From Mesoplasma entomophilum (lineage in GTDB: Bacteria; Bacillota_I; Bacilli_A; Mycoplasmatales; Mycoplasmataceae), in assembly GCF_002804125.1 (NCBI RefSeq), contig NZ_CP024966.1, forward strand, positions 620,001 through 684,000: a stretch of 64,000 bases of DNA, given 5' to 3'. Positions 520 through 5,105 of the stretch are shown here, one piece after another. The position numbers and the translations under genes were made by a program. Numbering within the stretch: position 1 is the stretch's first letter; every line of letters starts with the position of its first letter. Below the pieces are notes generated by a model. It saw nothing but the letters and a program-made list of their open reading frames with translations, made no database searches and was not told the origin of the DNA.

Positions 520-596
520 TGGTCGGAATAATTGGACTTGAACCAACGACCTCTCCGTTATCAGCGGAGTGCTCTAACCAGCTGAGCTATATTCCG
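520..596 (-). tRNA. tRNA-Ile(GAT)
   Basis: 77-nt cloverleaf with a CGGAATA/TATTCCG acceptor stem, anticodon GAT in the loop CTGATAA, a TTCAAGT T-loop and an encoded CCA end. It has its own downstream terminator and sits between the helicase/membrane pair and leuS. Confidence 0.96.
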
Positions 597-672: not shown

Positions 673-1164
673 TTATTCGACTACCCTACTTTTTTTGTAT
701 TTTTTTCTTTCTTCATCAGACAAAGTTTGAGGTACATTTTTTTGTCTCATAACTTTATTTTCATATAAATCAGAATTATTTTCATATTCTATAATTGCTT
801 CTGAAATTTCTGCTTTAAAATAGTTTTTTTCAGATAAATCTTGCTTAACTCAATAGTCAACTAAGTTCTTTAACTGATTCATTTTTTTAGGGCCTCTTGA
901 TTGAACAGAAGGTTTTAATGAATATCCACCTTTTCTTTGATCTACAATTTCATTTCTTATACTACTAATTAAGTGGGCCTTGTTATCAAGGTTTTTTCAC
1001 TCATAGCCATTTCTGCCCAAAGAATTAAGGGATAAGGATATTATATTTTCTATTTCTGTTTCAAAATCTTCTCTGGCTTTTTTACTTGCTAATGCTGTTA
1101 ATAAAAATAAAGCAAAAATTCCTAAAATAACTATAAATATTATTATTGGCAAAAAACTAGTCAT
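673..1164 (-). CDS. Small single-pass membrane protein, overlaps helicase-nuclease gene
   Basis: Protein of 163 residues with no family I recognise. Residues 4-26 (FLPIIIFIVILGIFALFLL region) form one strong transmembrane helix at the N-terminus. The rest is charged and soluble, probably cytoplasmic, ending in a basic KKYKKSRVVE tail. The start is chosen at the second ATG: the sequence ATGACTAG both starts this gene and stops the helicase gene, an 8-nt overlap, and AAGGAG lies about 10 nt upstream. An ATG 9 nt earlier is too close to the Shine-Dalgarno. The overlap suggests translational coupling with the helicase-nuclease, so the two may work together, for example by tethering the enzyme to the membrane (inference). 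Confidence is high for the gene, low for function. Confidence 0.8.
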
Positions 1165-4100
1165 TCTTTTCATTCTCCTTTAATCTATAACTTATTTCAT
1201 TTAAAAATTTATTTCTATTTACTTTATCTTTGTTTCATCAATCAATTGATGAAATCCTTATAAAGTTTCATCCTCTATTTTCTAAAAAAATTTGTCTTTC
1301 TATATCTCTTTGTCTATCATATGCTGATGAATGATATGCTCAACCATCACACTCAATTGCTAATACAAATTTATTATCCTTTAAATCATAAATTGCTTGA
1401 TCTATTTTGTAACCACTGCAAGGAACCTGAGTTTTAATTATATATCTAGATTCTAATTTTTTAGTTATCTCATTATAAACTTCTTCTTCAAAGTCTGAAT
1501 CAAATTGCAATATTTCACTTGTTTGGGCTTTAATGTTAATATCATTTTTATTATTTAATAATAGTTGGATTTCGCGATCATTAATTTCATGTTTTTGTAA
1601 TAACTCAGAATACTTTAAAAATGCTTTAAAATTTACTGCACCAATCGATTCTTTTTTTGGATTCATAATTTCAGATTGAATTGATTTAATTATATACATT
1701 TTTTCTTTTGCCCTTGAAATTGCAACGTTTAATCTCTTTTCTCCACCAACTTGATTTATTGGTCCAAAATTATTTCTAAATGAACCTTGCAAATCTTTAG
1801 AAAAACTTATTGAGAAAATAATTATATCTCTTTCATCACCTTGTACATTTTCAATATTTTTAATAAAAAGCGCTTTGTCCTTATCTTTTCTATTATAGTT
1901 TTCATTTAAATCTACATTAGTTTCAATTTCTTTTTCGACTAAAGATTCAATATATTTTTGCTGGTGTTGGTTAAATGTGATAATACCTATTGACTTTTCT
2001 TTTTCAGATTTAACAATTTTTCTCAATAATTTTATACATTCCTCAGCCTCAACAATATTAATATCATTTTGTTTTTGTCCTTCAACATCAATGATTTCGA
2101 TAGGTTTTGAAGAAGGGTTTCATGGGTCACTAACAACATTTAGTTTCCCTTCATAATATTTATAATTAGAAAATTGAATAAGTTCTTCATACTTACTTCT
2201 ATAATGAAAATTAAGCATATATCTTCTATATCTTCCTTTAGCGAAATCAATTAGTGATTCGTTATTTGAAAATTCTAATAATTCTTCTTGTTCATCAGAT
2301 ATGCCTTCTGTATATTCGTTTTCTATTTTATTTCTTGTTGAGAAAAAATCTGTTGGTTCTAATTGTTGGTCATCTCCAGCAATAATAAATTTTTTTGATC
2401 TAAACATTGCTGGCAAACATTTCTCGATAAAAATTTGTGAAGCTTCATCAAAAATACAATATTCAAACTCTTCTTTTTCCATTGGTATAATTCTTATATT
2501 TGAAATTGTTTCAGGCGATGCAAATATAATTGGGTACATCAATTCAATTAATGGGTAGAAATTATCAAATCAAGTTTTTAATCTAACATTTGTTTTAACT
2601 GAATCAATTCTTTTTCCCATCAAATTAAATAATGAAGAAAGTTCTCTTTCTGTTTCTGTTTTTACATCGTAGTATCTTCCGTTTAAAATTGTATTGCTTA
2701 TGTAATTAATTCTTTTTGCATATATATCATTTAAATCATTTTCATTTTTTAATTTTATTTGCTTCTTGAATTCTTTCATTCAGTCAGTTTTATTTCATTC
2801 CAAAATACTTAAATTTTCAGATTCGAAATTATTATTATAAAAATTATAAATGTCTTCAACAGAAACATTTTCATTTTTAAATAAACTTATAGTTTGGATT
2901 AAGTCAAATAATTCTTCTTTTGACATGTAACCCATGATTTCAGAACAATTGTCTAATTCACTTATTGAATCACTAAATTCTTTTGAATTAATGAAATTAG
3001 TGAATTTCTTTTTTGAGAAAATACCAATCTTAAATGAAACTTTGTTTTTAATTTTTGAGTTAAAAATTATCTCTCTGAATTTTTCAGATTTAAAAATTAA
3101 GTCAACTAAAATACTTGTCTTTTCAAATGAAACATTAAAATATTTGCTTACTCTTTTAAGCGCATTTAATATTTCTTTATTTGTAATTAAATTAAAATTT
3201 TTAAAAACTCTTTCATATAAATCATTGTTTAGCTCAAAAGAATTATCAATTCTTTTGTTAGAAATTATTTTTAAGCTTTTTAAATAATTTTTACCTTTAT
3301 CACTACCCATGACTTTTTTATAAGTTTTAAGATTTTCAATTATTTCTTCAAGCTTAGTATCATATTCTTTTGATATATTGTCAAAAGTGTTATAGATCCC
3401 TAATTGTTTTTTCTTAAATATATCATTTTTCACTAGATTGTAAAAAGCAGAAATTTTTTCATGAATTTCTTTTGCACTTTCATTGTTATGAAGCATTAAT
3501 ACAAAATTGTTTAATTTGTTTAATTTATCATAAACCACATTTGATGCAACTCTTTTCTCTGTAATAAAAATTGCTTTCTTTGTAACTTTATTCATACTAA
3601 TTATATTTGCTATTAAATTAACTATTGTTTGAGACTTTCCTGTACCAGGCGGACCAAAAATAAATGTTGATTGTTTCAAAGAATTTTTAACCGCATCTTT
3701 TTGTGAATGATCCAAAATCGATATTGTTTTGATTTCATTATCTTTTGTTTCAGTTATATCCGCACTGAAAATATCAAATACTTCATTTGATATTTCTTTA
3801 AGGAAATTAGCGTCATTTTCAAATTCTGAATATGCAGATAAAATGTTACCTGCAGCTAAATCAAAAATACCAATAGCGCAAATATCTAATGGGTATACTT
3901 TAAACCCTTTTTCAAATCCTTGCTCTAAATATTTTTCCTTTGTTTCTTTTTTTGTGTAACCTTTTACATCAGAAAAAGTGTTATTAAATGTATTCAGAAA
4001 TATTTGATCATTAACTTCAAGATTTAAACCAGCTAAGTTTAGTAGTCTTTTAATTGTTTGTATTGTTGTTTCATAATCTAAAAAGTCATCTGAGTTATAT

Positions 4101-4618
4101 TCATAAAAATTTCATTTAAGATTATTTTTGTTTGCTATTAAATTAAAAAGAGCGTTGTTTATCACAAATTCATTTTGAATATCAATAACAAATGTTTGGC
4201 CATAATTTTCGACCGATACTTTATTTAATAAAATGGGTGCTCTAAAATAGTCTTTATCTTCATTTCCTAAAAGTCCATGAATAAAATACTTTCCTATGTA
4301 CATACATTCTTGATTTTTTTCTGATGTTAGACTTTTATTTTTACTAATTATATTTTTTAGTTCTCTTATGTAACTATTGATTTCTATATATTTCTTTGAT
4401 TTAAATTCTTCAGTATTATTTCTAAAATCAATTTCAATTTTATTTTTTGAAAACTTTTGACTTAAAGTTTCAAATTCTGTCAATAATCCTTTTTTTTCAA
4501 ATTTATATAAGTTTATTGTTTGTGAATTTTTTAGAAAACTATTATAAAATGTGCTTCCTCTTCTAGTAGTATTTAATAAACGTGATTTAAATTCTTTCAT
4601 TAACTCTATATTATTCAT
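1157..4618 (-). CDS. Large SF1 helicase with C-terminal endonuclease domain
   Basis: Protein of 1153 residues, in frame throughout with TGA read as Trp. N-terminal domain (1-300) begins KSRLLNTTRRGSTFYN, resembling the DUF4011-type start of large helicases. Walker A FGPPGTGKSQT is near residue 320. A helical insertion follows. Walker B-like FDEASQ is near 724, GDDQQLEPTDF (motif III) near 748 and NFHYRSKYEEL (motif IV) near 805. VQGDERD is near 926 and RLNVAISRAK (motif VI) near 960. The last ~100 residues carry D...AIECDGWAYHSS, a PD-(D/E)XK/Vsr-like endonuclease signature. The helicase core is Upf1/DNA2-like SF1B. Genes of this architecture occur in anti-phage gene surveys, so nucleic-acid defence or repair is plausible but inferred. 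It sits between ribosomal and tRNA genes and overlaps a membrane protein gene. Confidence 0.9.
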
Positions 4619-4709: not shown

Positions 4710-5105
4710 TTAACGTTTTGAGTATTGAGGTGCTCTACGTGCTCCACGAAGACCGTATTTTTTACGTTCTTTAATACGTGCATCACGTGTTAGCAACCCA
4801 ACAGCTCTTAACCCTTTACGGTAATCTTCACTAGCAACTAATAATGCTCTAGCAATTCCTAAACGAGTTGCTCCAGCTTGACCAGTAAATCCTCCACCTT
4901 TAACTGTAACAGTGATATCAAAATCTTTTTCTGTTCCAGTTGCTACAAGTGGTTGTTCTAAGTCTTGAACTAATGTTGGATATGGGAAGAATTCTAATGC
5001 AGGAACACCATTAACAATGATGTTTCCTTTTCCAGGAGTTAAGATAACTTGAGCTACAGAAGTTTTTCTTCTTCCAGTTCCTCTATAAATAACTTTTTCT
5101 GCCAT
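4710..5105 (-). CDS. rpsI: 30S ribosomal protein S9
   Basis: 131-residue S9 protein of the small ribosomal subunit. It starts [20 protein letters not shown] and ends with the conserved basic [14 protein letters not shown] tail that reaches the P-site tRNA. The length is normal for the family. The ATG overlaps the rplM stop by one base (TAATG), giving the usual L13-S9 operon. AAGGAG lies about 10 nt upstream. A longer frame running on into the helicase leader is only read-through past the TAA and is not coding. Confidence 0.98.

What the first reader, a model, noticed from the sequence alone, without database searches (positions are those of the whole stretch)
673..4618. Helicase-nuclease and overlapping membrane protein: possible two-gene defence or DNA-processing unit
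A 1153-residue SF1 helicase ends in a PD-(D/E)XK/Vsr-like nuclease (AIECDGWAYHSS) and overlaps by 8 nt (ATGACTAG) a gene for a single-TM protein with a basic soluble domain. Large helicase-Vsr genes occur in anti-phage surveys, but I know of none coupled to a membrane anchor in Mollicutes. The unit is inserted between rpsI and tRNA-Ile/leuS, a plausible accessory site. The defence role is inference.
Basis: partly seen in the sequence, partly recalled or inferred. Interest (0 to 1): 0.75.

Follow-up and report, generated by a model that had tools for sequence, protein, structure and literature searches.

The report
Helicase-nuclease with membrane partner gene
A wall-less bacterium carries an accessory two-gene cassette, a large DNA-unwinding and DNA-cutting enzyme plus a small membrane protein made right after it, which looks like an antiviral DNA-destroying system fixed to the cell membrane; the enzyme type is known, the membrane partner is not described.

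Summary
Window 1157-4618(-) encodes a 1153-aa DUF4011 / SF1-helicase / MTES_1575 (Vsr-like) nuclease with all catalytic motifs intact. It overlaps a 163-aa single-TM gene (673-1164) by 8 nt, or 17 nt if the upstream ATG is used. The cassette is accessory: four of seven congeners have an empty 111-113 bp rpsI/tRNA-Ile gap, a fifth has a DUF6119 gene there, and one sister carries the same pair. The partnership is real: eight related genomes have a small TM gene directly downstream (-17 to +20 nt) of the orthologous helicase, at mostly different chromosomal sites. Seven of these are demonstrable homologues; the eighth matches only in size, position and topology. All eight fall in one 97%-supported helicase clade. 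Outside that clade the helicase stands alone (Bacillota) or has a different ~500-aa partner (a Spiroplasma clade). Several orthologues lie beside CRISPR-Cas, GmrSD, AIPR/AbiU-like or DndC-like genes. Both genes evolve under purifying selection. Best reading: a restriction-like, modification-independent DNA-degrading defence, docked to the cytoplasmic face of the membrane. Defence is well supported by context. Membrane docking is inferred from anatomy. Nothing here shows physical interaction or activity.

The parts
1157..4618 (-). DUF4011-SF1 helicase-MTES_1575 (Vsr-like) nuclease, 1153 aa, table 4
   Evidence: catalytic motifs invariant in 10 orthologues; dN/dS 0.09 against the sister species
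673..1164 (-). single-TM protein, 163 aa (166 aa if started at 1173); no Pfam, NCBIfam or PADLOC family
   Evidence: orthologues directly downstream of helicase orthologues; dN/dS 0.125
1157..1164 (-). 8-nt overlap ATGACTAG of the two genes (17 nt, 1157-1173, if the first ATG is used)
1175..1180 (-). AAGGAG ribosome-binding-like sequence inside the helicase 3' end, 10 nt before Met4 of the small protein
   Evidence: read directly from sequence
4148..4543 (-). DUF4011-like N-terminal domain of the helicase (aa 26-157)
   Evidence: 3e-05, above gathering cut-off
3632..3655 (-). Walker A GPPGTGKS (aa 322-329)
2438..2449 (-). Walker B / motif II DEAS (aa 724-727)
1193..1492 (-). MTES_1575 PD-(D/E)XK/Vsr-like nuclease domain (aa 1043-1142; D1073, E1089, D1091, H1096 invariant)
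   Evidence: predicted core order helix-3 strands-helix-strand
1087..1155 (-). transmembrane segment of the small protein (about aa 4-26)
520..596 (-). tRNA-Ile flanking the insertion (not part of the unit; marks the site)
   Evidence: empty site in four congeners

Best explanation
The cassette is a two-gene anti-invader system. The large protein is a translocating SF1 helicase-nuclease that recognises foreign DNA, probably by structure such as ends or single-strand gaps since no methylase is attached, and cuts it with its C-terminal Vsr-like domain. The small protein spans the membrane once, N-out/C-in, and its cytoplasmic helical domain holds or recruits the helicase-nuclease at the membrane, so that cutting is confined to DNA entering there from phage or conjugation. 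Shown here: the architecture, intact catalytic motifs, overlapping tandem genes, accessory status, conserved partnership, defence neighbours and purifying selection. Inferred: DNA cleavage, complex formation, localisation, trigger and protection against phage.
For: Helicase and nuclease domains with invariant catalytic residues. Best PADLOC model PDC-S37 (5.7e-133), then Hhe (8.3e-67); NCBIfam anti-phage ProA and Hhe models hit below cut-off. Same architecture class as the giant HEPN/transglutaminase/SF1/Vsr/wHTH proteins proposed as modification-independent DNA-targeting systems (PMC3710099). Accessory insertion with empty sites in congeners. Tandem TM partner in 8 of 11 orthologues at mostly unlike sites, in one clade with 97% support. 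Homology of the soluble part holds out of sample (E 2e-10 to 6e-11 with the TM removed). Neighbours: Cas1, Cas2 and a CRISPR-like repeat array, ResIII helicase (G116), GmrSD/PD-T4-2 and AIPR/AbiU (G106), DndC-like, HSP90-like and Z1 genes (G172). Purifying selection on both genes. Topology prediction N-out/C-in. Precedent for membrane-coupled DNA-targeting systems: Zorya, Kiwa, SNIPE (review PMC12904381).
Against: No functional data. In the window itself no other defence gene adjoins the pair. Three helicase orthologues (G172, G181, G133) lack the TM gene, G133's own helicase frame being interrupted, so the helicase may work alone. Most family members in Bacillota have no such partner. Distant relatives of the small protein occur without a helicase, some beside conjugation or plasmid genes. 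The small fold has no PDB match. A complex could not be modelled here.
Confidence: 0.5

Rival explanations
1. The small TM protein is the killing effector: on sensing phage replication or damaged DNA the helicase-nuclease releases or clusters it and it permeabilises the membrane (abortive infection).
For: TM effectors paired with sensors are common in known systems (general knowledge); the gene is tightly coupled and compact.
Against: Only one TM helix, with a conserved folded cytoplasmic domain (pLDDT about 90 over aa 10-110). The partner already carries an intact nuclease effector. The long helix H5-48 looks like a stalk. Distant relatives are kept without the helicase.
Confidence: 0.13
2. 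The helicase-nuclease is a complete single-gene defence system and the small membrane protein is an accessory with a separate job (for example a regulator or inhibitor, or a hitch-hiking plasmid gene).
For: Bacillota homologues are mostly single genes. G172 appears to have lost the TM gene while keeping an open helicase. Relatives of the TM protein occur beside a T4SS pilin and a ParA-like gene.
Against: Tandem order kept at different sites across divergent helicases (down to about 40% identity), confined to one clade; purifying selection on the TM gene.
Confidence: 0.22
3. The pair is a housekeeping DNA-processing unit (repair, replication-fork restart or DNA uptake), not defence.
For: SF1 Upf1/Dna2-like helicase with a nuclease; the locus sits among core translation genes.
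Against: Accessory with empty sites in congeners; patchy over the order (93 of 298 genomes at E up to 1e-60, any paralogue); repeated defence neighbours; nearest profile models are defence proteins.
Confidence: 0.1

Closest known systems
PADLOC candidate PDC-S37 (single-gene phage defence candidate)
   Same: Best HMM match (5.7e-133) over much of the protein; also the best match of a Spiroplasma homologue.
   Different: Listed as a single-gene candidate; the mollicute protein is shorter (1153 against a 1550-position model) and has a TM partner.
Hhe (DUF4011-helicase-Vsr anti-phage protein) and NCBIfam anti-phage ProA
   Same: DUF4011-like N-terminus, SF1 helicase and Vsr-like REase in the same order.
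   Different: Scores far below the equivalog cut-offs (458 against 1500 for ProA; 309 against 2000 for Hhe); about 700 aa shorter than the models; no separate membrane gene is part of either model.
MTES_1575 giant proteins (HEPN, transglutaminase, SF1 helicase, Vsr REase, wHTH; PMC3710099)
   Same: SF1 helicase plus MTES_1575 REase, no attached methylase.
   Different: No DUF3320/wHTH, transglutaminase or HEPN domain found here by Pfam: a stripped-down version.
Membrane-coupled DNA-targeting defences Zorya, Kiwa, SNIPE (review PMC12904381)
   Same: Membrane protein coupled to a DNA-acting partner: resemblance in working principle.
   Different: No sequence match to their components in PADLOC or Pfam for the small protein; no rotary motor and no KwaA-type protein; SNIPE is one membrane-bound protein.

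Membership tests
DUF4011-SF1 helicase-MTES_1575 (PDC-S37-like) family | SF1 helicase core with intact Walker A, motif II, III and VI residues | tested here: met
   AAA_11/AAA_12 hits; motifs invariant in 10 orthologues
DUF4011-SF1 helicase-MTES_1575 (PDC-S37-like) family | C-terminal MTES_1575/Vsr-like REase with conserved acidic residues | tested here: met
   9.3e-26, above cut-off; D1073, E1089, D1091, H1096 invariant
DUF4011-SF1 helicase-MTES_1575 (PDC-S37-like) family | DUF4011-like N-terminal domain | tested here: met
   3e-05, 24.5 bits against cut-off 22.2; weak but above cut-off
Hhe / ProA equivalog | curated full-length NCBIfam cut-off | tested here: not met
   Hhe 308.6 of 2000 bits, ProA 458.4 of 1500 bits
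MTES_1575 giant protein class (PMC3710099) | HEPN, transglutaminase and DUF3320/wHTH domains fused to the helicase-REase | tested here: not met
   none found by Pfam in P0001
Zorya / Kiwa | ZorAB motor or KwaA-type membrane protein with ZorD or KwaB partner | tested here: not met
   no PADLOC or Pfam match for the small protein; no Zorya or Kiwa hit for the helicase
Anti-phage defence system (function) | protection against phage or plasmid | not testable with these tools
   only genomic context and homology are available

The most novel reading that the evidence does not exclude
In one clade of wall-less bacteria a modification-independent helicase-nuclease defence was rebuilt into a two-gene membrane-docked system that attacks DNA at the point of entry; a sister clade fitted the same enzyme with a different, also unknown, ~500-aa partner. 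The helicase-nuclease would then be a module with interchangeable adaptor subunits.
Probability: 0.4. Interest if true: 0.7.

Novelty: new variant of a known kind. Interest (0 to 1): 0.55.

Why it matters
DUF4011-helicase-Vsr proteins are widespread defence candidates with no known rule for telling self from foreign DNA. A clade-specific membrane partner offers a testable answer, namely place (the membrane) rather than DNA sequence or modification. It also gives a small protein family without any current annotation a likely role, and shows accessory defence turnover at the rpsI/tRNA-Ile site of very small genomes.

Tried and rejected
Fusion evidence: the 1302-aa reading of a Spiroplasma homologue (L053) seems to carry an N-terminal TM, but its likely start (MEEKKLYT) lies behind that stretch and the stretch does not match the small family convincingly; rejected. 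Fold search of the small protein against PDB: no match (best E 1.1). Full-length helicase model too weak to use as a whole (pTM 0.34), so it was not searched; only the secondary-structure order of the nuclease was used. L112/G136's TM gene could not be shown homologous (E 0.88, no better than shuffled controls) and is counted as a positional analogue only. Weak small-protein hits at E 1e-4 to 1e-2 were treated as TM chance matches. A scan of viral contigs found only distant helicase relatives (8 loci); the small-protein alignment was not conserved enough to scan with. Literature searches found no paper on DUF6119 and phage and none describing this pair.

Full report
Observation. Two minus-strand ORFs, open under table 4, lie at 1157-4618 (1153 aa) and 673-1164 (163 aa, or 673-1173 with 166 aa). 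They share 8 nt (ATGACTAG) if translation starts at the second ATG, which has AAGGAG about 10 nt upstream inside the helicase gene; with the first ATG the overlap is 17 nt. Upstream is rpsI (4710-5105), downstream tRNA-Ile (520-596) and leuS.

The large protein. Pfam finds DUF4011 (3e-05), AAA_11 and AAA_12 (SF1 helicase) and a C-terminal MTES_1575 REase (9.3e-26). GPPGTGKS, DEAS, QGDERD and the nuclease residues D1073, E1089, D1091 and H1096 are invariant in ten orthologues; a helical 441-700 insert is poorly conserved. The nuclease is predicted with the helix, three strands, helix, strand order expected of PD-(D/E)XK folds, although the full-length model is weak. PADLOC's best model is PDC-S37 (5.7e-133), followed by Hhe and the Mokosh proteins MkoA and MkoC; NCBIfam hits anti-phage ProA and Hhe but far below the equivalog cut-offs. 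It is therefore a member of the DUF4011-helicase-Vsr class, not an Hhe or ProA equivalog. Anantharaman et al. (PMC3710099) argued that larger proteins of this kind act without DNA modification; the mollicute form lacks their HEPN, transglutaminase and wHTH parts as far as Pfam shows.

The small protein. It has no Pfam, NCBIfam or PADLOC match and only marginal PHROG hits. It has one strong TM segment at the N-terminus, no positive charge before it and 3 K/R in the 20 residues after it, which suggests a cytoplasmic C-terminal domain. AlphaFold2 with 14 relatives gives mean pLDDT 78, about 90 over residues 10-110: a long helix (5-48), then a small helical domain; the tail is disordered. No solved structure resembles it. 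The soluble part is only mildly basic (26 K/R, 22 D/E).

Accessory status. rpsI and tRNA-Ile are 111-113 bp apart in G001, G003, G005 and G006 of the same genus. G002 carries the same pair at the same place (94% and 91% identity). G004 carries a different insert there, a 589-aa DUF6119 gene. The site is thus a small insertion hotspot. The helicase shows dN/dS 0.09 and the small gene 0.125 between G000 and G002, so both products are maintained.

Partnership. In eleven helicase orthologues (about 38-94% identity) the next gene downstream is a TM protein of 136-180 aa, -17 to +20 nt away, in eight. These pairs sit at mostly different chromosomal sites. To avoid circularity, a profile of five of the small proteins without their TM segment was used to find the others: G116 and G106 at 6e-11 and 2e-10, while G136 is not detectable (0.88, like shuffled sequence) and counts only by position. 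In a maximum-likelihood tree of 49 helicases the TM-partnered ones fall in one group of nine with 97% SH-aLRT support, the ninth (G172) apparently a recent loss: its RBS region remains but the gene is gone. The two next-closest orthologues (G181, G133) lack the gene, G133's helicase frame also being interrupted. Other Spiroplasma-type helicases form a separate group with a ~480-511-aa downstream partner 2-9 nt away that has no Pfam or PADLOC match. Bacillota homologues mostly have no close partner. The TM gene is therefore a clade-specific addition. Among 362 ORFs in the mollicute loci, 8 fit its size and topology, and seven of the helicase-downstream genes in those loci do so.

Context. In relatives the pair or its orthologous helicase lies near Cas1, Cas2, a CRISPR-like repeat array and a ResIII helicase (G116), GmrSD/PD-T4-2-like and AIPR/AbiU-like genes (G106), and DndC-like, HSP90-like and Z1 genes (G172). 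By reading the translations, G181 has the same HSP90-like and Z1-like neighbours, and Cas9 lies next to the G033 homologue; neither was searched with a profile. A type I RM set adjoins the homologue in G007.

Mechanism. The most likely reading is a DNA-degrading defence whose helicase-nuclease is held at the membrane by the small protein, so that cutting is confined to DNA coming in. Membrane-coupled DNA-targeting systems with other parts are known (Zorya, Kiwa, SNIPE; PMC12904381). Shown: architecture, conservation, accessory nature, linkage, selection. Inferred: activity, complex, location, trigger. I put about 0.8 on a defence role of the helicase-nuclease and about 0.5 on the full tether model. 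The main rival is a one-gene system with an accessory membrane protein of separate function. In its favour, distant relatives of the small protein occur without any helicase in other Mollicutes, some next to a T4SS pilin or a ParA-like gene.

Novelty. The enzyme belongs to a known class of defence candidates. I found no description of its coupling to a membrane gene, within the limits of an open-access library. I rate it a new variant of a known kind.

Noticed in passing
L050:4163-9336, L051, L052, L069-L071, L073 and L053 (Spiroplasma-type genomes): A sister group of these helicase-nucleases is followed 2-9 nt later by a conserved ~480-511-aa protein without Pfam or PADLOC match: a second candidate two-gene variant.
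   Followed up: partly
L126:5776-7545 (G004): A DUF6119 gene occupies the same rpsI/tRNA-Ile gap in a congener; the site looks like an insertion hotspot.
   Followed up: partly
L096:1438-1953, L092:1462-1998, L093:1450-1944, L091:1450-1893: Distant relatives of the small TM protein in large mollicute genomes without this helicase nearby, some beside a T4SS pilin or a ParA-like gene and transposases.
   Followed up: partly
L111:204-17647 (G116): Defence island with Cas1, Cas2, a CRISPR-like repeat array, a GIY-YIG/SLFN-type helicase and a ResIII helicase around the pair.
   Followed up: partly
L113:5485-6855 (G172): Where the TM gene is lost, the next gene downstream is a 456-aa pentapeptide-repeat-like protein; a shorter similar one lies upstream of the helicase in G116 (L111:11227-11607). 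Read from the translation only.
   Followed up: no
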